Source: a bacterium (GTDB lineage Bacteria; Spirochaetota; UBA4802; UBA5550). From it: DNA of 16,868 bases. How positions within the stretch are numbered: position 1 is the stretch's first letter; each line of letters begins with the position of its first letter. The position numbers and the translations under genes are program-made. The notes under the pieces were generated by a model that was not told where the DNA came from, searched no databases, and saw nothing but the letters and a program-made list of their open reading frames with translations. Below, piece by piece: positions 1,241 through 16,868 of the stretch. The DNA lies in NCBI GenBank assembly GCA_024224995.1, contig JAAENB010000364.1, positions 1-16,868 on the forward strand, read 5' to 3'.

Positions 1241-1288
1241 CGCCCCCTTTTGGGGGTGCGACCCCTGCGAGGGGTGCGACCCCTGCGA
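1241..1288. repeat. GC-rich hairpin plus two tandem copies of an 18-bp repeat
   Basis: A CCCCC-TTTT-GGGGG hairpin (1243-1256) runs into two perfect tandem copies of GGGGTGCGACCCCTGCGA (1253-1270 and 1271-1288). Each copy contains an internal GGGG/CCCC dyad. The same 18-mer occurs inside the coding sequence of the large oxidoreductase subunit at 14348-14365. Open frames cross this block on both strands, but they read only the repeat and have no ribosome-binding site or recognisable protein, so I treat the region as non-coding. Nothing else gene-like is seen in 1135-1382. Confidence 0.8.
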
Positions 1289-6168: not shown

Positions 6169-8289
6169 TTAAACAATCCGTTTTACCGCAATGACAGTAA
6201 GGTCGTCATCAAGTTTCTCGCCGCCAAGAAAGTCATAAAAATCATGAACAATATGGTCCAGGACCTGTTTCGCGGACCCGGCAGGAGCTTTTTCAAAAGA
6301 AGAGATAAGCCGTTCGTTAAATGAAATATCCTGACTGTTCATGCTTTCGGTTAAGCAATCGGAATAGAGCAGTATGATATCACCCTGAGCCATAGAAAAT
6401 TCTATTTTACCAAAAGAGCCGGCAACTTTTTGAATACCCAGGAGAGCGCCTTTAAAACCGGGATCAATTGAATCGATAATCGTTATTTTGCCGGAAGAAC
6501 CGCTTTTGCTCAGTAAGGGCGGATGCCCGGCATTCACGTATTCTACCGTATTATTATTAAACCTGAGAAAGATGCCCGTAAGATAATTATCAACAGAGTC
6601 TATTTCCGCGATAAGATTGGTATTGGTTTTTTCAATTATGGCATTAAGCGGTTTGTCCCGGTTGCGGTGAAAATTCCTGAATAGAATGGGTTTCGCGATC
6701 ATGGTAATGAGAGCCGAAGCTATCCCGTGTCCCGAAACATCAAGAAGAGAAAGCCCTGTCAGTGTTTCATCTTTTTGGTAAAAATCGTAGAAATCACCGG
6801 AAACCCCGCTCATGGGTTTATATAAAAAAGCAATGTCCCATTCCTTGCTCCGGGGAGGCAGTTCCGGAAATAATGACGCCTGTACATTTGTGGCCATCAT
6901 CATATCTTTATTGACAATACGCTGCACCCGCTCAAGATCCAGGTTGGTATCAACAAGGGCTTTATTCATTAATTCCATCTCTTTTACTGTAGCTTCAAGC
7001 TCCCCGGTTCTTTCCGTAACCTTGTTCTCCAGGCCGAGATTTAATTCTTCCACCTCGTCGCTGAGGCTCACGAAGTGGTTGGCCAGTATTGTGGCATAGG
7101 TGATCAGAAACGCGAAAAATCCAAAATGGCCTATTCGCCCCCATGTTAAAAGTCCTCTATTCACCAGCACATCATTAAAAAGAGCCGCAAGACCGGGGAG
7201 AAATCCCAGAAGCATATATATAGCGTCCCTGTTTTTTCTCAGAGCGTTTTTTATAAGGGTCCAGGCGGCAAACGCAAGGGGGATAATCCATAAGGGCTGA
7301 ACAACTGTTATATAAAACCGGAACCAGGTAGTACTATCATTGGATACCAGGGGGACAGCAATAAAACATAGAGCGATAACATTGTTTATTTGTATTATTT
7401 TTTTTTCTATTTTGGCAAATTTTTTTTCGGTTTTTGCGTAGTAGAAATAGATGAAATTCATAAATAAATAGATCATGGTAAAAAGAAATATATATTCAAT
7501 TCTTTTCATTATATAATAGTCTTCAAAGAAGTAGTATTTAATCTGGGTTCTTAAAAAGAAATATGCCGCAAACCAGAGGCTGGTTAATCCAAAAAAAAGA
7601 TTCTCGTATAATTGTGCTTTTTTAAAGTATAGGAATAGGTAAAAATATGCAACCATGAGAAATATCGCAACAATAAAGAAAATGACAAGGTTTTCCATGA
7701 AGAATGATTCAAGGATCTTTTTTTCCTGTCCCAGGAAAACCGTGCAGAAAGCAAGATCAAAACCGGCGTAATCCGCGAACAGAGCCTGTACCCGGATTGC
7801 CAGGACATTATCTTGCCCCGGTTTTATTGAGCCCAGGGGGACGGGGTAAAGACGAACCTTGTCGTACGCGCTGATAGTTGGCCTGTTTTTCCCGGGGGCG
7901 ATCTCTCCTGATTTTCCAATAAGCTGTCCGTTGAAGAAGACTTCATCAGCGTCATCAACAGGACCGATTCGAAACATCAGGGGCTTGTAATTGTGTTTTT
8001 CCGGAATACGTAAATGGATCCGGTACCATGCAAAATTACTGTTAGAGTGGGGGGAGACTGCGGGATCCTTCCAATTGTGAGGCAAAGAAGCAACTGTTTC
8101 CCAGGAGCTGTCGTCCCACTCCGGAAGCCGGTAATCAAGGTTGTCTCCCGGTATAAACTTCCATTCATTGGGCGCTGTACCCAGGTTAAGCGCTGTTCCC
8201 AGGTCATTGGGAACTATAATCTCCGCGCGCAGGTTATGCGTAAAAAAAAACAATATGAGTAAAAAAGTAATTTGTACTATTCTTTTCAT
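6169..8289 (-). CDS. Membrane sensor with SpoIIE/RsbU-type PP2C phosphatase domain
   Basis: A 706-residue signalling protein. Residues 1-22 form a signal peptide. Residues 30-185 form a periplasmic jelly-roll, galactose-binding-like domain (RLPEWDDSSWETV, LPHNW, WYRIHLRIP, VFFNGQLIGKSGEI). Residues about 198-408 hold seven membrane helices of the 7TMR-DISM type. A coiled coil (410-458) links to a SpoIIE/RsbU PP2C domain (465-706). The metal-binding acids are present: D499 and D502 in GDFYDF, D517 in LLDVSGHG, D644 in YSDCLTES and D695 in DDLTV. Such phosphatases dephosphorylate anti-sigma-factor antagonists, so an extracytoplasmic ligand may switch a sigma factor or similar output. I chose the ATG at 8289 because of GGAGA just upstream and the signal peptide. 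It has a promoter at 8322-8350 and a decayed paralogue immediately upstream. No antagonist or anti-sigma gene is in the window. Confidence 0.9.
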   Translation of the reverse strand: MKRIVQITFLLILFFFTHNLRAEIIVPNDLGTALNLGTAPNEWKFIPGDNLDYRLPEWDDSSWETVASLPHNWKDPAVSPHSNSNFAWYRIHLRIPEKHNYKPLMFRIGPVDDADEVFFNGQLIGKSGEIAPGKNRPTISAYDKVRLYPVPLGSIKPGQDNVLAIRVQALFADYAGFDLAFCTVFLGQEKKILESFFMENLVIFFIVAIFLMVAYFYLFLYFKKAQLYENLFFGLTSLWFAAYFFLRTQIKYYFFEDYYIMKRIEYIFLFTMIYLFMNFIYFYYAKTEKKFAKIEKKIIQINNVIALCFIAVPLVSNDSTTWFRFYITVVQPLWIIPLAFAAWTLIKNALRKNRDAIYMLLGFLPGLAALFNDVLVNRGLLTWGRIGHFGFFAFLITYATILANHFVSLSDEVEELNLGLENKVTERTGELEATVKEMELMNKALVDTNLDLERVQRIVNKDMMMATNVQASLFPELPPRSKEWDIAFLYKPMSGVSGDFYDFYQKDETLTGLSLLDVSGHGIASALITMIAKPILFRNFHRNRDKPLNAIIEKTNTNLIAEIDSVDNYLTGIFLRFNNNTVEYVNAGHPPLLSKSGSSGKITIIDSIDPGFKGALLGIQKVAGSFGKIEFSMAQGDIILLYSDCLTESMNSQDISFNERLISSFEKAPAGSAKQVLDHIVHDFYDFLGGEKLDDDLTVIAVKRIV

Positions 8290-8321
8290 GTTCTCCGGTT
8301 TCCTGCCCCTGGTAACCACTT

Positions 8322-8350
8322 AGACTACATTGTTTTTTGAATTCTGTCAA
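8322..8350 (-). promoter_or_regulatory. Promoter of the intact phosphatase gene
   Basis: On the minus strand, TTGACA (8350-8345) is followed after 17 bases by TAGTCT (8327-8322). The -35 box overlaps the stop codon of the upstream decayed paralogue. The stretch AAGAAAGATTTGACA is identical to that at the paralogue's own promoter. Confidence 0.6.
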
Positions 8351-9864
8351 ATCTTTCTTTTGATGACTATCACCGTAAGGTCGTCTTTAATTTCAGCGCC
8401 TTCCATGAAAGCATAAAAGTCCTTTAGTATTGAATCAAGTATTTGCTGCGCCGAACCGGCAGGTGCTTTTTGAAATGAAGGAACCAGGCGGCGTTCGTAT
8501 GGGATCATATCGGCCTTCATGCTTTCAGTGAGACAGTCGGAATATAACAGGAGTGTATCGTTTTTTGCCATGTCCCACTCCGCAGTTTGGGGAGGCTCTT
8601 TGGGAAAGAGTGTGGTTTGTACATTGGCAGCCATACGCAGATCCCTGTCGGCTATGGTTTGGGCTGTTTCAAGATCAACATTTATATCAATCAGTTGATT
8701 GTTCAGTGATTCCATTTTGTCCATTGCTTCTTCAAGTTCCCCGGTCCGTTCATCTACTTTTTTTTCCAGGTTGAGGTTTAATTCTTCCACTTCATTGTTG
8801 AGCCGAACAGAGCGATTTGCCAGTATAGCCGCGAAAAGGATGAGGAAAACGAAAAAGGAAAAATGACCAATACTTCCCCAGGGCAAAATGTCCCGGTCGG
8901 ACAGGATATCATTGATTATAGACAAACTTCCTATAATAACACCACTCATTATATACCAGGCATCCCGTTTTTTTTGACGGTGTTTTTAATAACAATCCAC
9001 AGGCTCAGGCCTAAGGGAGTATCCACAATGGCTGTACAATGGTTTTGTTAAACCAATTCCAAAAAGTAATATCTCCGGAAAGAATAGGAACCGGTATTAC
9101 TGAAAATAATGCTATATTGTTTATATATAATAAGCGTTTTTCGAGTTTTTCGAACCTGCTTTCGAATTCGGAGAAGAAGAAATAGATAAAATTGCACAGG
9201 ATAAATACAGCAGAAAAAAAAGTTATATATTCAAGCCTTTTAAAAAGCAGGTATTCGGATGAGAGATAGAATTTGAACTGGGTTCTTAAAAAGAAATAGA
9301 GCGCGAAGAGAATCGCGGCTGCACCAAAAAATAGAATTTCGGGCCTTTTTCTTGTTCTAAGGAACAGGATAATAAAATAAAATCCAACGGTAAAAAATAT
9401 AATTACGGTTGAAAAGGGAACCAGGTTTTCTTTAACAAAATTATCCATGATCTCCGGGTAGTATCCCAGTAGAGCCCGGCTGGATCTTGCCTTAAAGCCT
9501 CCTGACTCTAAATAAAGAGACTTCATCCGCGCTGTTGATGGGACCTAAACGGAACATCAGGGGTATGGAGTGCAATTTTTGGGGAAAGCGCAGGCGTATG
9601 CGGTACCAGCCGAAGTTTCCCTGGCAGTCTGCCCGGGGAGATCGTTCCCCCCAATTATGGGGGATTGACGCAATAGCCTGCCACTCTTTGTCGTCCCACT
9701 CCGGAAGCCGGTAATTGAGATTGTCGCCCCTGGTAAATTTCCATTCTCCCGGGACCGCGCCAAGATCAAAGGAACCATCCGGTTCGGAAGGAATGGGAAC
9801 CGCACTGTAAAGATTGAGAGAAAAAAGGGGGATAAGAATAATCAATATAATATTTTTTTCTCAT
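8347..9864 (-). pseudogene. Decayed tandem paralogue of the sensor/7TM/SpoIIE phosphatase
   Basis: Three minus-strand fragments align in order with the intact neighbour. Bases 9492-9845 encode the signal peptide end and the first part of the sensor domain (RLPEWDDKEWQAI, IPHNWG). Bases 9011-9526 encode the first 7TM helices (ALYFFLRTQFKFY, IVQPLWILP). Bases 8347-8949 encode the last helix, coiled coil and ends of the PP2C domain. Damage is multiple. A frameshift in a 7-base homopolymer (9853-9859) separates the ATG at 9864 from the signal peptide. About 60 residues are deleted with a frame change near 9500. A stop lies at 9011 and a further frameshift at an 8-base run (8968-8975). In-frame, about 150 residues of the PP2C core are lost: EWDMA joins directly to KNDTLLLYSD, removing the GDFYD and DVSGHG acids. 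Phosphatase activity is impossible even if the frames were repaired. Its promoter (9901-9929) looks intact. Confidence 0.88.
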
Positions 9865-10012: not shown

Positions 10013-10040
10013 TAGACGCGGTTTCGCCGGGGGAAAAAAG

Positions 10041-10077
10041 GTTTGAAGTTTGAAGTTTGAAGTTTGAAGTTCAAGAG
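10041..10077 (+). repeat. Four tandem GTTTGAA heptamers in the operon leader
   Basis: Bases 10041-10068 are four perfect copies of GTTTGAA, followed by a degenerate GTTCAAG. They lie between the promoter and the Shine-Dalgarno (GAGGGGAG, 10075-10082) of the first gene. The frame through them is open, which would extend the protein by ten residues from a TTG, but this is repeat sequence and not part of the ALDH family. Related repeats occur at the other three junctions of the operon. Confidence 0.85.
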
Positions 10078-10086
10078 GGGAGTGTT

Positions 10087-11634
10087 ATGAAAGGGACTAT
10101 TGATAGAGATTTTTTGGAAGAGCTTGGAATAAAAGAGGTTAATAATGGAGCTACCGTGGGGACCAGTGACGGGTGGCTCTCTACTAAAGGGAAGGAGCTT
10201 GTTTCGGTGTCGCCTATAGACGGGCAGCCCATTGCTTCTATTGTACAGGCAACGGGGGAGGAGTATGAGCAGGTTATGCGGGAAGCGGAAGAGGGGTTTA
10301 AGAAATGGCGGATGATGCCCGCGCCGCAAAGAGGGTTGATCGTGCGGGAGATTGGGGACGCGCTTCGGAAATATAAAGATCCCCTGGGAAAGCTGGTTAC
10401 TCTTGAAATGGGAAAAATTTACCAGGAAGGGCTGGGTGAAGTGCAGGAAGCAATTGATTGCGCCGATTTCGCCGTAGGGCTTTCCCGGCAATTGTACGGA
10501 CGTACCATGCATAGTGAACGGCCTCTTCACCGGATGTACGAACAGTGGCATCCCCTGGGGATTGTGGGAATTATTACAGCGTTTAATTTTCCCGTGGCAG
10601 TATGGTCCTGGAATTTTCTTATTGCCGCCGTATGCGGAGACACGGTTCTCTGGAAACCCAGTTCAAAGTCGCCGCTAACCGCGGTTGCGGTCCATAATAT
10701 TCTCGCTCCTGTTGCCGACAAACATGGTCTTAGCGGCGTCTTTAATCTTGTAATAGGAAGCGGCAAAGAAGTCGGAAACACGATGACTACAGACAAACGC
10801 CTTCCGCTAATAAGCGCCACCGGAAGTTGTGCCATGGGCCGGAAAGTGGGGCAGGCTGTTGCGGGCCGGCTTGGCAGAACGCTGCTTGAACTTGGCGGGA
10901 ACAATGCCATTATCGTAACGGAAGATGCCAACCCGGATCTTGCGATACGGGCAACGCTCTTTGGGGCCGTGGGAACCGCGGGACAGCGCTGTACTTCCAC
11001 GCGCAGGATCATTATACATAAGAGTATGCGGGGAAAGTTTGTAGAGTCTCTGGTTAAGGGGTATGAACAGGTGAAAATAGGAAATCCCCTTGATGAAGGA
11101 GTTCTCATGGGTCCGCTGGTAGACCGGGAAGCGGTTAATACCATGATGCAGGTGCTTGAGAATATTAAAAAAGAAGGCGGTACTATTTTGCATGGCGGCA
11201 AACCCGCAACGGTTCCGGGCTTTGAAAATGGTTTTTATGTTGAACCCACTATCGTGGCAGCATCAAAAGACCTGCCTTCGATGAAAGAAGAAACCTTCGC
11301 GCCAATTCTCTATATTATTGAATATAATGACCTGGACGAAGCCATGACCATTCACAACAATGTAGACCAGGGCCTCTCGTCCGCGATTTTCACAAACTCT
11401 CTTATCAATTCCGAACGCTTCCTCTCTCATGAAGGCTCCGACTGCGGAATCGCCAATATCAACATCGGTACCAGCGGCGCCGAAATCGGCGGTGCCTTTG
11501 GCGGAGAAAAAGACACCGGCGGTGGTCGCGAAAGCGGCTCAGACTCCTGGAAAGCGTATATGCGTCGGCAGACGAATACCATTAATTGGAGTAAAGATAT
11601 GCCGCTTGCGCAGGGGATAAAGTTCAAAGTTTAA
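10087..11634 (+). CDS. ALDH7-type aldehyde dehydrogenase (alpha-aminoadipic semialdehyde dehydrogenase-like)
   Basis: A 515-residue NAD(P)-dependent aldehyde dehydrogenase that closely follows the ALDH7/antiquitin pattern, from DFLEELGIKE to the typical end PLAQGIKF. Catalytic residues are C302 (GTAGQRCTSTRR), the general base E268 (LLELGGNN) and N167 (AFNFP). K190 of LWKPSS binds cofactor. ALDH7 enzymes oxidise alpha-aminoadipic semialdehyde (in equilibrium with piperideine-6-carboxylate) to alpha-aminoadipate in lysine/pipecolate breakdown. The substrate here is inferred from the family. I chose the ATG at 10087 because GAGGGGAG ends 4 bases upstream. It is the first gene of a four-gene run with 31, 58 and 101-base gaps. 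The last codons (KFKV-stop) are written in the heptamer-like sequence that fills the following junction. It could also act on a different semialdehyde produced by the operon's oxidoreductase. Confidence 0.93.
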   Translation: MKGTIDRDFLEELGIKEVNNGATVGTSDGWLSTKGKELVSVSPIDGQPIASIVQATGEEYEQVMREAEEGFKKWRMMPAPQRGLIVREIGDALRKYKDPLGKLVTLEMGKIYQEGLGEVQEAIDCADFAVGLSRQLYGRTMHSERPLHRMYEQWHPLGIVGIITAFNFPVAVWSWNFLIAAVCGDTVLWKPSSKSPLTAVAVHNILAPVADKHGLSGVFNLVIGSGKEVGNTMTTDKRLPLISATGSCAMGRKVGQAVAGRLGRTLLELGGNNAIIVTEDANPDLAIRATLFGAVGTAGQRCTSTRRIIIHKSMRGKFVESLVKGYEQVKIGNPLDEGVLMGPLVDREAVNTMMQVLENIKKEGGTILHGGKPATVPGFENGFYVEPTIVAASKDLPSMKEETFAPILYIIEYNDLDEAMTIHNNVDQGLSSAIFTNSLINSERFLSHEGSDCGIANINIGTSGAEIGGAFGGEKDTGGGRESGSDSWKAYMRRQTNTINWSKDMPLAQGIKFKV

Positions 11635-11645
11635 ACTTCAAACTT
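11621..11645 (+). repeat. Heptamer-family repeat overlapping the end of the ALDH7 gene
   Basis: AAGTTTAAACTT (11627-11638) is a perfect 12-bp palindrome containing the TAA stop at 11632-11634. AGTTCA precedes it and TTCAAACTT follows. It belongs to the GTTTGAA/TTCAAAC family. The Shine-Dalgarno AAGGAGG of the next gene comes after the repeat. Confidence 0.75.
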
Positions 11646-11665
11646 AAAAAAAAGGAGGCTATTTT

Positions 11666-13297
11666 ATGACCAACGCATTCTTCTCTACGCCAATTCCGCA
11701 TAACGAACCGATATATTCTTATGCTTCGGGTACTAAAGAGCGAGACTTTTTAAGGCAGGAACTTGAGAAACAATACAATCATGAAATAGAGATTCCGCTT
11801 ATCATCGGCGGGAAAGAGATAAAGACCGGTAACATGGGGACGTGTATTTGCCCGCATGAACACGGGCATGTGCTTGCGCGGTATCATAAGGCCGGAAAAA
11901 AAGAAGTGGCAATGGCCATAGACGCGGCCCTGGAAGCGAAGAAGATGTGGGAGGCGCTGCCCTGGGAAGAGCGGGCTGCCGTGTTTTTAAAAGCAGGGGA
12001 GCTGTTGTCGACAAAGTACCGGTATATAATTAATGCCGCCACAATGCTGAACCAGAGCAAGAATCCTTACCAGGCCGAGATAGATGCCGTCTGCGAACTG
12101 GCCGATTTTTTGCGTTTTAATCCTTATTATATGCAGAAGATTTACAGTGAGCAGCCCATGTACAGTCCCGGAGGCATGTGGAACCGGGCCGAGTTCCGTC
12201 CCCTTGAGGGATTTGTTTTTGCGGCAACCCCTTTTAATTTTACCTGTATTACGGCAAATCTCGCTGCAACACCGGCATTGATGGGAAACGTTATTTTATG
12301 GAAACCGGCTTCCACTGCGGTCCTTTCGGCGTATTACGCGGCTTTGCTTTTTAAAGAAGCAGGCGTTCCCAATGGCGTTCTAAACTTTATACCCGGTCCG
12401 GGGGCTGCGGTAGGCGACCCGGTCTTTGAAAGCGAGCACCTGGCAGGAGTCCACTTTACCGGTTCAACCGCCACGTTTCGAGGAATGTGGAAAAAGATCG
12501 GGGATAATATTCACCGGTATAAAACCTATCCCCGGATAGTGGGAGAAACCGGGGGAAAAGATTTTGTCGTGGTTCATAATTCGGCAAACGCGCGTGAGGC
12601 TGCTGTGGCCCTGGTGCGGGGAGCTTATGAATACCAGGGACAAAAATGCTCCGCAGCTTCCCGGGCCTATATCCCGGAATCCCTCCGGGACGAGGTAGAA
12701 AAAGAATTAGGCAGTATGATAGAAGATATTAAAAAGAATACCGGAGACCCCAGGGATTTTAAATTTTTTAACGCCGTGATCGATGAAACTGCTTTTGATA
12801 GAATAATGGGCTGCATCGAAAAAGCCAAAAATTCTCCCGAGGCCGATATAATTTTTGGCGGAACCGGCGATAAAACGAAAGGATATTTTATTGAACCAAC
12901 AGTAATTCGAACGCGGGACCCCCACTTTGTTACCATGGAAGAGGAAATCTTCGGCCCGGTCCTTACGGTTTATGTATATGATGATAACAAATTTGAAGAG
13001 ACCCTGGAAATATGCGACAGCACCTCACCCTACGCCCTTACGGGTTCAATTTTTTCAAGGGACCGCCAGGCCATTGTCAAGGCAGCGGAAGTGCTGCGCC
13101 ATGCTGCCGGTAATTTTTATATTAACGACAAACCAACAGCAGCAGTAGTGGGGCAGCAGCCCTTTGGCGGTTCCCGGGGCTCCGGAACAAACGACAAAGC
13201 AGGCTGGCACCTGAACCTGCTTCGATGGACAAGCCCCAGGGCAATAAAAGAAACCTTTTGCCCGCCAAAGGATTATGGGTATCCTTTTATGGAGTAA
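11666..13297 (+). CDS. pruA: L-glutamate gamma-semialdehyde (delta-1-pyrroline-5-carboxylate) dehydrogenase
   Basis: A 543-residue protein matching the ALDH4/PruA class over its whole length. It oxidises glutamate gamma-semialdehyde, the open form of pyrroline-5-carboxylate, to glutamate with NAD. Hallmarks are an N-terminal RNEP-like segment (HNEPIYSYASGT), PFNFT with N191, LWKPASTA, the base E294 (VGETGGKDF), the nucleophile C328 (YQGQKCSAASR), EEIFGPVL, and the class-specific end NFYINDKPT..VVGQQPFGG..GTNDKAG followed by LRWTSPR. AAGGAGG lies 10 bases before the ATG. It sits between the ALDH7-like gene and a two-subunit FAD oxidoreductase of the type that can make P5C from proline, so it probably performs the second step of proline use. 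It is a stand-alone enzyme, not part of a PutA fusion. A perfect Shine-Dalgarno-like AAGGAGGAG directly follows its stop. Confidence 0.95.
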   Translation: MTNAFFSTPIPHNEPIYSYASGTKERDFLRQELEKQYNHEIEIPLIIGGKEIKTGNMGTCICPHEHGHVLARYHKAGKKEVAMAIDAALEAKKMWEALPWEERAAVFLKAGELLSTKYRYIINAATMLNQSKNPYQAEIDAVCELADFLRFNPYYMQKIYSEQPMYSPGGMWNRAEFRPLEGFVFAATPFNFTCITANLAATPALMGNVILWKPASTAVLSAYYAALLFKEAGVPNGVLNFIPGPGAAVGDPVFESEHLAGVHFTGSTATFRGMWKKIGDNIHRYKTYPRIVGETGGKDFVVVHNSANAREAAVALVRGAYEYQGQKCSAASRAYIPESLRDEVEKELGSMIEDIKKNTGDPRDFKFFNAVIDETAFDRIMGCIEKAKNSPEADIIFGGTGDKTKGYFIEPTVIRTRDPHFVTMEEEIFGPVLTVYVYDDNKFEETLEICDSTSPYALTGSIFSRDRQAIVKAAEVLRHAAGNFYINDKPTAAVVGQQPFGGSRGSGTNDKAGWHLNLLRWTSPRAIKETFCPPKDYGYPFME

Positions 13298-13306
13298 AAG
13301 GAGGAG
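13298..13306 (+). promoter_or_regulatory. Stranded Shine-Dalgarno separated from its gene by a repeat
   Basis: AAGGAGGAG directly follows the pruA stop. No start codon lies at a workable distance. The next ATG (13356) is 49 bases on, after a GTTTGAA palindrome, and is preceded only by the weak GTTGGA. The simplest reading is that the repeat entered between the site and its start codon. Confidence 0.5.
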
Positions 13307-13342
13307 TTTGAAGTTTGGAGTTTGAAGTTTAAACTTCAAACT
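13307..13342 (+). repeat. Heptamer repeat with 24-bp perfect palindrome
   Basis: TTTGAAGTTTGG leads into a perfect 24-bp palindrome at 13319-13342, centred on GTTTAAAC between 13330 and 13331. It can fold as a 10-bp stem with a TTAA loop, or serve as a symmetric binding site. It occupies most of the 58-base gap between pruA and the large oxidoreductase gene. Confidence 0.85.
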
Positions 13343-13355
13343 ATAAGTTGGAACT

Positions 13356-15449
13356 ATGAACAGAATAAAAGACCATCCAATCTTAGAGCCCACGAAGGAA
13401 CGGGAATTGGTTTCTTTTTTCTTCGAAGGGGAGGAACTGTCCGGGTATGAAGGAGAGCCTGTTTCTTCCGCTCTTATTGCTAATGGGATAACTTCGTTTT
13501 CGGTCCATAAAAAGGATAATTCGCCTCAGGGGATTTTTTGCGCGAACGGGCAGTGTTCACAGTGTACTCTTATTATTGATGGGGTGCCGCTGAAGTCATG
13601 TATTACGCCCTTACGGAAGGGAATGAAAATTTTACGGCTGATTCATCTTCCGGCATTGCCCGAGGATAACAGGGGAGCGGCTCAAACAAAAGACCTGGAG
13701 GTAAAAACGGGTGTGCTTGTTATTGGGGCGGGGCCAGCCGGACTTACGGCCTCTCTTGAGCTGGCAAAGCTTGGATTTTCTGTTTTATTGGTAGACGATA
13801 AATCGCGGCCCGGAGGCAAACTGCTTTTGCAGACCCATAAATTTTTTGGTTCAATAGAAGACTGTTATGCCGGAACCAGGGGCGTGGATATAGCAGCCCG
13901 GCTCGAAGAGGAAATATCCGGGCATGAGAATATCATCCTTATGCGTAACGCCACTGTTGTTGGTTTTTACACCGACAAAAAGGCCGCCATATTTAAAAAT
14001 AACGAAAGTTATATGATAGTTGAACCTGCGGGAGTTGTTGTCTCCGCCGGGGCTCGTGAACGGTCTCCGCTTTTTAAGGGGAACGGGCTTCCCGGAGTCT
14101 ATGGCGCGGGAGCGTTCCAGACCCTGGTAAACCGTGACCTCACGGCAGCGGCAAAGCGGGTTTTTATTCTGGGAAGCGGAAATGTTGGGCTCATCGCGGC
14201 CTACCACGCGGTCCAGGCCGGGATCACTGTCGTTGGCATCGCCGATATCCTGGACAGAACTGCCGGGTACAAGGTCCATGCCGATAAAATTAAACGGGCC
14301 GGAGTGCCCATCTATTTGAACTCAACTGTAATCGCGGCAGAAGGCGAGGGGTGCGACCCCTGCGACCCCTGCGAGGGGAAGGTCGAGCGGGTTACTATTG
14401 CTGAAGTAGACAGCGCCTGTAATCCCCTTCTTGAAACAGCCCGGACCTTTGAAGTTGATACCCTGCTTACGGCAGTGGGGCTTACCCCGGTAAATGAATT
14501 ATATTCTATCGCGCAAACGGCAGGAGTCCCGGTGGTTACTGCCGGAGATGCCGGAGCAATCGCAGAGGCATCAAGCGCCATGTTTGAAGGGCGTATTGCC
14601 GCTCATGAACTGGCAAAACTTCTGGGAACGAAGACCGGTCAGCATGATAACTGGACAAAGAAACAGGAAGAACTCAAGTCGAAACCGGGAAAAACTTTTC
14701 CGTTTATAGAGCCGGAGCTTTCAAAAGAATTTGTACCGGTTTTTCATTGCGTACAGGAGATTCCCTGTAATCCCTGTACCTCGGTCTGTTCTATTAAAGG
14801 GATTAGCCTGAAAAAAAGCAGGGGCACTATTCTGGATGTACCCTTTTTCAAAGGAAGCTGTATTGGGTGCGGTAACTGTGTGGCGGTTTGCCCCGGGCTC
14901 GCGGTGACCCTTGCCAAAAAAATCGATGATACTTTCGCGGAAATTATACTGCCCCATGAATGCGTCCCGCGTTTTAAACCCGGAGAGGCCATTGAGCTCA
15001 CGGGAATGGAAGGGGATATTCTCGAAAGGGGCGAGGTATTAAAAATAAGACTGAATAAACAATATAAGACCTGGCTGGTATCGGTGAAGGTTAGCCGGAG
15101 TAACGCTGCTCATATAGCCGGGATCAGGATCCAAAAAGATACTGAAACCGCGCCCCTGCGGGAGCCGCTCTTTAATTACGCGCCCGGGAAAAGTATTGTA
15201 TGCCGCTGTGAGCGGGTAACCGTAGATGAAATTGTTGCTTTTATTAAAGAACATGAAGTGCGTGACGTAAACCAGCTGAAACAAATCCGTGTTGGTATGG
15301 GAGCATGCGGCTCAAAAACCTGTTCTGTTTTAATGCCCCGGATCTTTGCAATGGCTGGCGTAGACTGGGACACGGTCGCAGAAGGAAAAAAACGTCCCCT
15401 GGTGGTTGAGGTGCCTATGGGGAGGGTGGTTAATGAAGAAAAAGAATAG
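13356..15449 (+). CDS. Multidomain Fe-S/FAD oxidoreductase, alpha subunit of a proline/opine/sarcosine-type dehydrogenase
   Basis: A 697-residue protein that fuses parts found as separate subunits elsewhere (HcnA+HcnB, opine oxidase, dye-linked proline dehydrogenase). Residues 17-95 are a 2Fe-2S ferredoxin domain with C62, C67, C70 and C82. Residues 118-425 are a two-dinucleotide-fold flavoprotein: VIGAGPAG at 122-129, RPGG, and a second fold ILGSGNVG at 271-278. Residues 465-515 hold ferredoxin-type 4Fe-4S ligands (C471, C474, C478; C502, C505, C508, C512-P). The C-terminus has a BFD-like 2Fe-2S site (C616, C618, C651, C656). It probably passes electrons from the neighbouring FAD subunit to a carrier or NAD. 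Residues about 331-341 (EGCDPCDPCEG) are encoded by a genomic repeat and look like an insertion between strands. An in-frame stop at 13344 fixes the start; its Shine-Dalgarno is weak. Confidence 0.9.
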   Translation: MNRIKDHPILEPTKERELVSFFFEGEELSGYEGEPVSSALIANGITSFSVHKKDNSPQGIFCANGQCSQCTLIIDGVPLKSCITPLRKGMKILRLIHLPALPEDNRGAAQTKDLEVKTGVLVIGAGPAGLTASLELAKLGFSVLLVDDKSRPGGKLLLQTHKFFGSIEDCYAGTRGVDIAARLEEEISGHENIILMRNATVVGFYTDKKAAIFKNNESYMIVEPAGVVVSAGARERSPLFKGNGLPGVYGAGAFQTLVNRDLTAAAKRVFILGSGNVGLIAAYHAVQAGITVVGIADILDRTAGYKVHADKIKRAGVPIYLNSTVIAAEGEGCDPCDPCEGKVERVTIAEVDSACNPLLETARTFEVDTLLTAVGLTPVNELYSIAQTAGVPVVTAGDAGAIAEASSAMFEGRIAAHELAKLLGTKTGQHDNWTKKQEELKSKPGKTFPFIEPELSKEFVPVFHCVQEIPCNPCTSVCSIKGISLKKSRGTILDVPFFKGSCIGCGNCVAVCPGLAVTLAKKIDDTFAEIILPHECVPRFKPGEAIELTGMEGDILERGEVLKIRLNKQYKTWLVSVKVSRSNAAHIAGIRIQKDTETAPLREPLFNYAPGKSIVCRCERVTVDEIVAFIKEHEVRDVNQLKQIRVGMGACGSKTCSVLMPRIFAMAGVDWDTVAEGKKRPLVVEVPMGRVVNEEKE
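14344..14378 (+). repeat. GC-rich 18-mer repeat inserted in frame inside a coding sequence
   Basis: GGGGTGCGACCCCTGCGA at 14348-14365 is identical to the two tandem copies at 1253-1288. A half copy CCCCTGCGA (14366-14374) and GGGG follow. It encodes GCDPCDPCEG, keeps the reading frame, and adds three cysteines between AAEGE and GKVERV, a point where related oxidoreductases have a short turn. Confidence 0.85.
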
Positions 15450-15460
15450 TTCGAGGTTTA

Positions 15461-15524
15461 AAGTTTCAAGTTTGAAGTTAAAAATTTCCCTGAACTTCAA
15501 GCATCAAACTTCAAACTTCAAACT
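15461..15524 (+). repeat. Heptamer-family inverted repeat, 18-bp arms with one mismatch
   Basis: AGTTTCAAGTTTGAAGTT (15462-15479) pairs with 15507-15524 at 17 of 18 positions (C-C mismatch at 15467/15519) across a 27-base loop. It fills most of the 101-base gap between the alpha and beta subunit genes, before the purine-rich AGAGAGG. Confidence 0.85.
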
Positions 15525-15550
15525 AAATAAAGAGAGGCTCATGAAAAAAA

Positions 15551-16699
15551 ATGAAAACCCCGGATATATTGTTAATAGGTGCCGGAAGCGTTGGTCTTCC
15601 CCTGGCGTATAACCTGGCGGATAAAGGTGTCCGGGTGCTTGTTATTGAAAAAGAGGTCTCGCCCGGAAGGGGGCAGAACAGGGCTGCCATAGGCGGGATT
15701 CGGGCCACGCATTCGGTTCCTGGTAAGATTGTTATTGGCAAGCGTTCTATTGAAATCGTGAAAAGAATGGAAGAGATATTCGGCAGCGATGTGGACTGGT
15801 TCCGGGGAGGGTATCTTTTCCCGGTTTACGAAAAGGGAACCGAAGAAAAATTGAAAGATCTTCTGGTGAAGCAGCAGTCCTATGGGCTCGATATTAACTG
15901 GATAGGGCCGGAAGATATCGCGGAACTGGTTCCGGGGATAAACAGCAGGGAGCTTCTTGGCGGGACCTGGTCGCCGGGAGATGGGTCCGCTAATCCTTTA
16001 AAGGTGCTGGGGCAGTATTATAAGGCTGCCAGGGAGAAAGGAGTTGTTTTTTCTTTTGGTGAAACAGTGACCGCTGTTAAGAAAAAGGGAAACCGGGTTG
16101 TGACGGTTGAGGGCTCCCGTGATACCTATACTCCGGGGTTTGTTGTTAACGCGGCCGGGGCGCATGCCTCCGGTATTGGCAAACTTATTGGAGAGACTGT
16201 TCCGGTCTATCCCGCTCCCCATGAAGCCGGAGTTACGGAGCCGGTGAAACGCTTTTTTAACCCAATGATTGTGGATACCCGTTCTATTGAAGGGTCGGAC
16301 AATTGCTATTTTTATCAGAATAAAGAAGGGCCGGTGATTTTTTGCGTCACTCCGAACCCGGAGATTACGGGAAACAATAACGAAAACCGTTCCAATTTTC
16401 TACCCGGTGTTATACGGAGAATGCTGTATGTATACCCCCGTCTCAGAAATCTCCGGGTACGAAGAACCTGGCGGGGCCTGTATCCCATGACCCCGGACGG
16501 GCTTCCTATTGTTGGTTTTTCGCAGAAAATAGAGAACCTGTTTCACCTGGGCGGGATGTGCGGCCAGGGATTTATGCTGGGCCCGGGCCTGGGAGAGATC
16601 CTGGCAGAAGTCCTTGTTGAAAAGACTCAGGAGTATAATTCTATTCTTGAAGAGTTAAGCCCGCACCGGGATTTTTCCGGTGAGGAATTGTTGAAGTAA
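15551..16699 (+). CDS. DAO-family FAD-dependent dehydrogenase, probable catalytic (beta) subunit for proline or related imino acid
   Basis: A 382-residue flavoprotein with the FAD-binding ILLIGAGSVG (GxGxxG at 10-15), VLVIEKE at the end of the second strand, WFRGGYLFPV, and the C-terminal RTWRGLYPMTPDGLPIVG and GQGFMLGPGLGE. This organisation matches the beta subunit of dye-linked L-proline dehydrogenase, HcnC/D-hydroxyproline dehydrogenase and sarcosine oxidase beta. It oxidises a C-N bond of an amino or imino acid. With pruA in the same operon, proline to pyrroline-5-carboxylate is the favoured reaction; pipecolate, hydroxyproline or sarcosine remain possible. The start is odd. AGAGAGG is best placed for the ATG at 15541, which is out of frame and closes after 23 codons, while the in-frame ATG at 15551 overlaps the end of an A8 run and lies 13 bases away. 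One A fewer would join them as MKKMKTPDIL. Confidence 0.9.
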   Translation: MKTPDILLIGAGSVGLPLAYNLADKGVRVLVIEKEVSPGRGQNRAAIGGIRATHSVPGKIVIGKRSIEIVKRMEEIFGSDVDWFRGGYLFPVYEKGTEEKLKDLLVKQQSYGLDINWIGPEDIAELVPGINSRELLGGTWSPGDGSANPLKVLGQYYKAAREKGVVFSFGETVTAVKKKGNRVVTVEGSRDTYTPGFVVNAAGAHASGIGKLIGETVPVYPAPHEAGVTEPVKRFFNPMIVDTRSIEGSDNCYFYQNKEGPVIFCVTPNPEITGNNNENRSNFLPGVIRRMLYVYPRLRNLRVRRTWRGLYPMTPDGLPIVGFSQKIENLFHLGGMCGQGFMLGPGLGEILAEVLVEKTQEYNSILEELSPHRDFSGEELLK

Positions 16700-16710: not shown

Positions 16711-16868
16711 CTCTCAGAACCCACCCTTGCCGGAATCTCCATAGCCCTTGCCTGAAACCAGCCAGTAAAGACGTTGCACTGCAACGTCTCTCAGAACCCA
16801 CCCTTGCCGGAATCTCCATAGCCCTTGCCTGAAACCAGCCAGTAAAGGCGTTGCACTGCAACGTCTCT
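16711..16868. repeat. 77-bp tandem repeat containing a 21-bp dyad, running off the window
   Basis: Two complete units (16711-16787 and 16788-16864) and the start of a third (16865) are seen. The two differ at one base (A versus G in the left arm of the dyad). Each contains AGACGTTGCA-C-TGCAACGTCT (first copy 16769-16789), a near-perfect inverted repeat with a one-base centre. The period is not a multiple of three and the open frames through it lack start signals, so it is non-coding. The array length cannot be judged. Confidence 0.9.

What the first reader, a model, noticed from the sequence alone, without database searches (positions are those of the whole stretch)
14344..14378. An intergenic 18-mer repeat has entered a flavoprotein gene in frame, adding a cysteine-rich loop
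GGGGTGCGACCCCTGCGA is tandem twice in the non-coding region at 1253-1288 and appears exactly at 14348-14365 inside the 697-residue oxidoreductase, with a further half unit. It encodes GCDPCDPCEG and leaves the flanking protein (AAEGE and GKVERV) continuous. This resembles the palindromic elements of Rickettsia that insert into ORFs without breaking them. Because the unit is 18 bp, tandem expansion always keeps the frame, and each unit adds cysteines to an Fe-S protein. That the segment is a later insertion is inferred.
Basis: partly seen in the sequence, partly recalled or inferred. Interest (0 to 1): 0.72.

Follow-up and report, generated by a model that had tools for sequence, protein, structure and literature searches.

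The report
Tiny hairpin repeat inserted inside genes
An 18-letter DNA repeat that can fold into a small hairpin has been added, as one and a half units, inside a metabolic gene without breaking it, and the same repeat sits inside core genes of other uncultured bacteria, which makes it an unusually small relative of known gene-invading palindromic repeats.

Summary
The 18-mer lies exactly at 1253-1270, 1271-1288 and 14348-14365 (0.01 expected). The gene copy is a 27-bp, 1.5-unit insertion: 119 of 119 aligned homologues lack the nine residues. It falls in a predicted disordered beta-turn. The window's own genome is not held, so copies there could not be counted. Elsewhere the repeat is dispersed in two Candidatus Troglogloeales MAGs (26 and 36 copies; reversed-pattern control 0). 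There, 21 of 50 arrays lie inside genes, in five of six frames. Related loci of RNase R, an aminotransferase, RecG and CarA lack them: 15/15, 19/19, 16/16, 16/16 that cover the site. The unit is a 5-bp stem, 3-nt loop and TGCGA tail, open in all six frames. Insertions prefer purine^GNNG, and the array's own junction fits that site. I read this as a self-targeting, REP/RPE-like mini-hairpin: a new variant of a known kind. The cysteines are a by-product of frame. The copying enzyme is unknown.

The parts
14348..14374 (+). Inserted 1.5-unit array GGGGTGCGACCCC-TGCGA-CCCC-TGCGA (27 bp) inside the oxidoreductase gene; encodes about nine residues, EGCDPCDPC (ends ambiguous by +/-4 nt)
   Evidence: 119 of 119 aligned homologues lack it
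14348..14365 (+). Exact 18-bp unit: stem GGGGT/ACCCC, loop GCG, tail TGCGA
14366..14374 (+). Half unit CCCCTGCGA
1253..1288 (+). Intergenic tandem of two exact units, upstream of the ammonium transporter gene
13356..15449 (+). Host gene: 697-aa FAD/NAD and Fe-S oxidoreductase of the sarcosine oxidase alpha / L-proline dehydrogenase alpha type
10057..11634 (+). L-piperidine-6-carboxylate dehydrogenase (NF050084 above cut-off), same cluster
11666..13297 (+). L-glutamate gamma-semialdehyde dehydrogenase (TIGR01236 above cut-off), same cluster
15551..16699 (+). DAO-family FAD oxidoreductase, probable partner subunit
   Evidence: partnership inferred

Best explanation
The 18-mer is one unit of a very small dispersed hairpin repeat: a 5-bp stem, a 3-nt loop and an unpaired TGCGA tail. 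It spreads like REP or Rickettsia palindromic elements. It is copied, most likely as a folded single strand, into sites of the form purine^GNNG without duplicating target bases. The junction it creates, CTGCGA^GGGG, is itself a good target, so new units land next to old ones and tandem arrays grow in 18-bp steps. Because the unit is a multiple of three and has no stop in any frame, copies that fall in a surface loop of a protein survive as neutral insertions. In the window one and a half units were added this way to an amino-acid dehydrogenase-like gene. Shown: the insertion, dispersal in two other genomes, unit anatomy, target preference and an 18-bp length difference between two near-identical stretches. 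Inferred: the single-stranded copying step, the enzyme, and neutrality.
For: Window gene: 119 of 119 aligned homologues lack the nine residues, and excising the 27 bp fits them better than not (353.9 against 334.9). Dispersal: 26 and 36 copies (<=2 mismatches) in two Troglogloeales MAGs, 0 for the reversed pattern; of the other 16 genomes of the order 12 have none and four have 1-3, a level the reversed pattern also reaches in some. Insertions: RNase R array (4 units) absent in 15/15 relatives, aminotransferase (2 units) in 19/19 loci of 17 genomes (three are distant paralogues), RecG (1 unit) in 16/16 including the other Troglogloeales MAG, CarA (1 unit) in 16/16 that cover the site. PDB relatives have gaps at the array: 6 residues for CarA, 6 (1gm5) or 2 (9wm0) for RecG, 12-13 for the aminotransferase, 5 for an AMP-ligase, and a longer broken gap for DnaX. 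Excision fits best within 5 nt of the array ends in 5 of 5 genes (offsets -15 to +15 tried). Anatomy: in 169 kb of one MAG, TGCGA ranks first among pentamers following a perfect 5-3-5 hairpin (6 of 344, z 8.2; AGGGT is second at 8.1); stems covary (3 pairs changed on both sides, 6 of 500 shuffles as high). Target: +1 G 36/42, +4 G 28/42, -1 purine 39/42, no signal beyond +4. Array junction CTGCGA^GGGG scores in the top 0.3% of random sites, window gene site AGGCGA^GGGG in the top 0.5%. Length: two near-identical G004 stretches (117 of 122 bases alike upstream) differ by exactly 18 bp in the array.
Against: The window's genome is not held, so dispersal in that organism rests on two arrays in 17 kb. 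No match of the window gene at E<=1e-80 was found in 148 genomes of the Troglogloeales phylum (the tool warns that this empty answer had no positive control), so how one 18-mer reached unrelated bacteria is unexplained. The window's intergenic array does not fit the target (48.6% of random sites score as high), and the target is degenerate: 5% of random sites beat the median real site. In G002 arrays are depleted in genes (5 of 20 against 51% of random sites, p 0.024). Glutamine synthetase carries a unit without a clean insertion. TGCGA leads in the 5-3-5 and 4-5-4 hairpin shapes but not in three others (ranks 145, 201, 813), and is fourth when shapes are pooled. A Y1 transposase gene exists once in each MAG but has no consensus-like unit beside it. 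The longer of the two near-identical stretches holds a variant, partly inverted unit, so it is not a plain unit count. I have no expression data.
Confidence: 0.75

Rival explanations
1. No dedicated mobility (a rival only to the copying step above): short arrays spread by replication template switching. A nascent strand ending in a G/C run anneals to a G-run array elsewhere, copies 18 nt or a multiple, and returns to the same G run.
For: Right flanks begin with the unit's own GGGG more often than chance: 14 of 50 arrays share 4 or more bases with their array's start, against about 0.6% of random sites. No consistent target duplication. No dedicated enzyme found. Half units occur (window).
Against: Strong preference on the left flank as well (-1 purine 39/42, T 0/42, and -4 to -2), which microhomology on the right does not predict. 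TGCGA-tailed hairpins with unrelated stems exist.
Confidence: 0.4
2. The insertion is adaptive: the CDPC-CDPC loop binds a metal or acts as a redox relay in this Fe-S flavoprotein.
For: Three added cysteines (C333, C336, C339) in a protein with other Fe-S motifs.
Against: None of the 119 aligned homologues has it. The loop is predicted disordered, pLDDT<50 at 335-339. Elsewhere the repeat gives AGVAPL, SQGSHP, GATPAR and GVRPLR as well as GCDPCE, so cysteines follow from frame.
Confidence: 0.05
3. Local slippage only: the array arose from the gene's own GAGGGG and its likeness to the intergenic copy is coincidence.
For: GAGGGG flanks the insert on both sides; a tandem half unit is present.
Against: An exact 18-mer shared with an unlinked site is expected 0.01 times, and the same 18-mer is dispersed in other genomes. 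Slippage can explain growth of an array, not its arrival.
Confidence: 0.06
4. The repeat is a fixed regulatory or protein-binding site (terminator, methylation or nucleoid site) that also happens to occur in genes.
For: Palindromic, G+C-rich, in arrays; 29 of 50 arrays are not classed as intragenic by the criterion.
Against: Relatives lack it in conserved genes, strands are mixed (9 same, 12 opposite), frames too, and 12 of the other 16 genomes of the order have none.
Confidence: 0.07

Closest known systems
Rickettsia palindromic elements (RPE; Ogata et al., as reviewed in PMC2229807, passages read)
   Same: Palindromic repeat in intergenic DNA and in frame inside conserved protein genes.
   Different: RPE is 105-146 bp and in Rickettsia. 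Here the unit is 18 bp, in arrays of 1-4 units, in unrelated uncultured bacteria, and open in all six frames.
GTAG- and CGTC-tagged REP repeats, especially Thauera GTAG-1 (PMC3733652; section 15, part 1 of section 17 and passages read)
   Same: Short unpaired tag plus hairpin; Thauera GTAG-1 has 5-bp stems and is largely clustered; intragenic units occur in unrelated proteins, many in DNA synthesis and repair.
   Different: The tag here is TGCGA (TCGCA), neither GTAG nor CGTC. Neighbouring units are mostly head-to-tail at 18 bp, an arrangement that paper finds absent or rare in most genomes. No transposase gene found beside a unit.
REPINs with RAYT transposases (PMC3116915; start of abstract and passages read)
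   Same: Small non-autonomous hairpin DNA spread within genomes.
   Different: A REPIN is a REP doublet forming a hairpin, linked to a RAYT; here inverted neighbours are rare (2 of 50 arrays) and no linked RAYT was found.
Cyanobacterial small dispersed repeats (Elhai et al. 2008; not held; recalled, seen only as a citation)
   Same: Recalled as elements of about 20-27 nt with evidence of mobility, some within genes.
   Different: Different sequences and hosts; the tandem 18-bp hairpin plus tail design is not recalled there.
PARCELs (PMC2996958; abstract and outline read)
   Same: Tandem coding repeats with dyad symmetry, probably spread horizontally.
   Different: A 25-residue amphipathic protein motif in ORFs without assigned function, not an insert read in many frames of core enzymes.

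Membership tests
Rickettsia palindromic element | Length of about 105-146 bp | tested here: not met
   18-bp unit, arrays of 1-4 units; RPE size from PMC2229807
Rickettsia palindromic element | In-frame copies inside conserved protein genes | tested here: met
GTAG/CGTC REP super-families | Terminal GTAG or CGTC tag not in the stem | tested here: not met
   Neither tetranucleotide occurs in the tandem on either strand; tag-like tail is TGCGA
GTAG/CGTC REP super-families | Stem 5-13 bp and loop 2-20 (GTAG), or stem 8-9 bp and loop 4-5 (CGTC) | tested here: met
   5-bp stem, 3-nt loop: within the GTAG range, outside the CGTC range; ranges from Table 1 of PMC3733652
GTAG/CGTC REP super-families | Predominantly inverted (head-head) dimers | tested here: not met
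   10 of 50 arrays have 2-4 head-to-tail units; 2 of 50 have a perfect-stem inverted unit within 60 bp (L004, L086) and 2 a further same-strand one
GTAG REP / REPIN | Associated RAYT (Y1 transposase) gene flanked by the repeats | tested here: inconclusive
   PF01797 once each in G002 and G004, no consensus-like unit in the loci around either; in G002 the nearest known unit is on the same contig about 1.6 kb away
MITE | Target-site duplication | tested here: not met
   Excision of whole arrays fits relatives best within 5 nt of the unit edges; flanking bases are not regularly duplicated
MITE | Terminal inverted repeats of a parent IS | not tested
   No parent element was searched for
PARCEL | 25-residue amphipathic coding repeat | tested here: not met
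   6-residue period, five frames used

The most novel reading that the evidence does not exclude
A third class of tagged mini-hairpin, marked by TGCGA and variable stems, is among the smallest mobile DNA known. Its own junction is its target, and its 18-bp, stop-free unit writes six-residue modules into core proteins of bacteria of unrelated groups and of a phage.
Probability: 0.4. Interest if true: 0.75.

Novelty: new variant of a known kind. Interest (0 to 1): 0.6.

Why it matters
It extends gene-invading palindromes, known from Rickettsia and some REP-rich genomes, down to an 18-bp unit in uncultured groups, with five genes (the window's and four others) in which homologues show the empty site. 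The target rule and self-made target give a testable account of how tandem arrays start and grow, and of why some repeats can cross coding sequence freely: length divisible by three, no stop in six frames. It also warns annotators that short cysteine-rich or Pro-Gly loops in such MAG proteins may be repeat DNA, not function.

Tried and rejected
Own-genome count: not possible. Placing the window: no match at E<=1e-80 in 148 genomes of the G004 phylum (no positive control). In the phylum of G010 the best is 57% identity (100 genomes), and the 18-mer with up to 1 mismatch is in 1 of 392 genomes there, the starting genome itself, so that single Spirochaetes match may be chance.

Single matches elsewhere: an exact 18-mer is expected about 7.5 times by chance in 257 Gb. 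I therefore give no weight to single hits in Curtobacterium (6 records with similar flanks, so probably one conserved coding site), Rhizobium, Pacificimonas, Propionibacterium, Thermoanaerobacterales, Thermoflexus, Lentisphaerae or Spirochaetes.

RAYT link: looked for, not supported. Glutamine synthetase: unit present, but PDB relatives show no clean gap. UvrD: no PDB match at 1e-20, so its three units (L085) are not validated. Target duplication: considered and not supported. The covariation test uses units chosen by likeness to the consensus; the tail test does not, but its sample is the 20 contigs C1-C23 of G004 left after C3, C6 and C9, which I had fetched before because they hold units. 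That test scanned about a thousand pentamers in several hairpin shapes. In one search, 8 of 50 arrays with unit-like flanks were dropped before the count. In one search, 1 of 17 CarA relatives did not cover the site. In some searches the 20 ORFs read were chosen by me for high coding score; one of the 20 (L033) has no Pfam family. An earlier wish to call the arrays strictly head-to-tail failed: one search found 2 inverted neighbours.

Literature: no paper in the library holds the 14-mer core or its complement. In the listings (titles and starts of abstracts) I saw REP, RPE, MITE and PARCEL papers and none that describes this repeat; the library lacks most subscription journals.

Full report
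The observation. The 18-mer is at the stated places, exactly, three times, and the shuffles give 0.01. Inside the 697-codon ORF it is one unit plus a half unit, 14348-14374. The ORF stays open.

The insertion is real. The 120 listed proteins of the homologue search are the window's own and 119 others, 58-63% identical (which scored the 8000 candidates sharing most words and listed the best 120). A MAFFT alignment shows that all 119 pass straight from an AEG-like strand end to a GKVERV-like strand, where the window has nine more residues, EGCDPCDPC. Excising 27 bp at the array raises the mean score against the 119 from 334.9 to 353.9; offsets from -4 to +4 tie because GAGGGG flanks the insert on both sides. 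The AlphaFold2 model (43 aligned sequences, mean pLDDT 81.6) puts the loop between strands 323-329 and 345-351, with pLDDT below 50 at 335-339. The host protein is nearest in sequence and fold to the alpha subunit of heterotetrameric sarcosine oxidase and, by fold, next to L-proline dehydrogenase of P. horikoshii. It lies after L-piperidine-6-carboxylate dehydrogenase and glutamate semialdehyde dehydrogenase genes and before a DAO-family gene, so an amino-acid catabolic role is likely (inferred).

Where else the repeat is. No genome is held for the window. An exact scan of the genome collection (one genome for each of 84,980 species) gave 38 stretches; 22 are in Candidatus Troglogloeales MAGs, 10 each in SBBA01 and JACPZM01. 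With up to two mismatches these two genomes, G002 and G004, hold 26 and 36 copies and the reversed pattern 0. Of the 18 genomes held for the order, 12 have none, and the four besides G002 and G004 that match have 1-3, no more than the reversed pattern has in three of the 18. The window's gene has no match at E<=1e-80 in 148 genomes of that phylum (without a positive control), so the window is probably from another group. Two Nitrospinota loci carry pairs of units at 19-bp spacing. Of three viral stretches, two are on one 90-kb contig: one has three units, the other has a unit in the last codons of a RecA-family ORF.

Inside genes. In G002 and G004 I counted 50 arrays with 69 units. By a fixed criterion (open frame and coding score on both flanks) 21 are intragenic: 16 of 30 in G004, where 60.5% of random sites pass, and 5 of 20 in G002, where 51% pass. 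So genes are not clearly avoided in G004 (p 0.46) but are in G002 (p 0.024). Of 20 array-bearing ORFs that I chose for high coding score, 19 match Pfam families, among them those of TamB, UvrD, an aminotransferase, RecG, a DDE transposase, RNase R, a DsbH-like protein, RpoD, CarA, an AMP-ligase, cytochrome c, BamA, a CusB-like protein, a kinase, glutamine synthetase and DnaX (protein names beyond the Pfam names are mine). The frames of the 21 are AGVAPL 7, SQGSHP 5, GCDPCE 4, GATPAR 3, GVRPLR 2 and RRGRTP 0; zero of 21 in a given frame has probability 0.02 under equal use.

Empty sites. Four genes were aligned with relatives from the order. RNase R's four units are absent in 15 of 15, the aminotransferase's two units in 19 of 19 loci (17 genomes; three loci are distant paralogues), RecG's unit in 16 of 16, including the G004 orthologue at 69% identity, and CarA's unit in 16 of 16 that cover it, one of 17 not covering. 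PDB relatives have gaps there too: six residues for CarA, six (1gm5) or two (9wm0) for RecG, 12 and 13 for the aminotransferase, five for an AMP-ligase; DnaX shows a longer, broken gap that takes in neighbouring sequence. Glutamine synthetase shows none that is clean. Excision of whole arrays fits best within five nucleotides of the array ends in all five genes tried, offsets -15 to +15.

Anatomy. Folded as single-stranded DNA the unit is a 5-bp stem with a 3-nt loop and a free TGCGA (8 of 200 shuffles fold as well); two units fold into one longer hairpin, and 0 of 200 shuffles fold as well. Because the tail T-GCG-A equals the loop with its closing pair, the array is also an alternation of TGCGA with GGGG and CCCC every 9 bp. 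Of 36 distinct units, four carry changes on both sides of a pair, while 16 of 180 pair positions are broken. In 169 kb of G004 (20 contigs, three unit-bearing ones left out), TGCGA is the first-ranked pentamer after perfect 5-3-5 hairpins (6 of 344, z 8.2; AGGGT second at 8.1) and after 4-5-4 ones, but not in three other shapes; with shapes pooled it is fourth. The hits include stems unlike the consensus such as GGGCA/TGCCC. Neighbouring units are mostly head-to-tail: 10 of 50 arrays have two to four units, and 2 of 50 have a perfect-stem inverted unit within 60 bp. Tandem arrays are open in all six frames; that is not rare in itself, since 64% of shuffled units share it.

Target. Flanks of 42 arrays (8 of 50 with unit-like flanks dropped) show G at +1 in 36, G at +4 in 28, a purine at -1 in 39 and no signal beyond +4. 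The 17 intragenic ones agree (+1 G in 15). The preference is degenerate: 5% of random sites beat the median site. The array's own junction CTGCGA^GGGG is in the top 0.3% of random sites and the window's gene site in the top 0.5%, but the window's intergenic site is ordinary. There is no regular target duplication.

Length change. Two stretches of G004 with near-identical flanks (117 of 122 bases upstream) differ by exactly 18 bp in the array; the longer one includes a variant unit in inverted orientation. They may be strain variants or paralogues.

How it works. I think the unit is copied as a folded single strand into purine^GNNG sites, and that its own junction draws further units, giving arrays. 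Whether a transposase in trans or replication template switching does the copying is open. A Y1 transposase gene is present once in each MAG but not beside consensus-like units. Intragenic copies persist because they cannot shift or stop the frame and, as modelled in the window, sit in loops (inferred for the rest).

Known or new. Intragenic palindromes are known: RPE in Rickettsia (PMC2229807, passages) and GTAG/CGTC REPs, including a Thauera family with 5-bp stems, with many intragenic copies in DNA synthesis and repair genes (PMC3733652, section 15, part 1 of section 17 and passages). This repeat fails the tag and dimer criteria of those REP families and the size criterion of RPE, so I file it as a new variant of the known kind.

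Noticed in passing
window 10034-10074, 11618-11654, 13299-13352, 15442-15534: The gaps before or between the genes of the catabolic cluster carry heptamer arrays of GTTTGAA/AACTTCA in both orientations, like short tandemly repeated sequences of cyanobacteria (recalled).
   Followed up: no
window 16711-16868: A 77-bp unit in tandem (2.1 copies, 98%) at the contig end, carrying the palindrome AGACGTTGCACTGCAACGTCT, with one base changed in the second copy.
   Followed up: no
G004 contig sample L325-L344: Hairpins followed by CCCTA or CCCCT are strongly enriched, which may be GTAG-tagged REPs read from the other strand in the same genome.
   Followed up: partly
L040, L041 (viral contig UViG_3300027891_000005): A viral contig carries three tandem units at one place and, at another, a unit in the last codons of a RecA-family ORF; both are followed by another 18-nt hairpin-plus-TGCGA unit with a different stem.
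   Followed up: partly
window 8347-9845: Three ORFs that look like a second, frame-broken copy of the gene at 6169-8319 (repeats such as 73% over 101 nt).
   Followed up: no
L001 2764-2853: A Clostridiales MAG has five tandem units, two of them degenerate, in the ORF of a periplasmic-binding-protein gene ahead of its Pfam domain, and two more arrays with other stems; possibly independent slippage.
   Followed up: partly
G002 and G004 intragenic arrays: Three of 21 intragenic arrays sit in UvrD, RecG and DnaX, echoing the published note that intragenic REPs often hit repair genes; not tested for significance.
   Followed up: no
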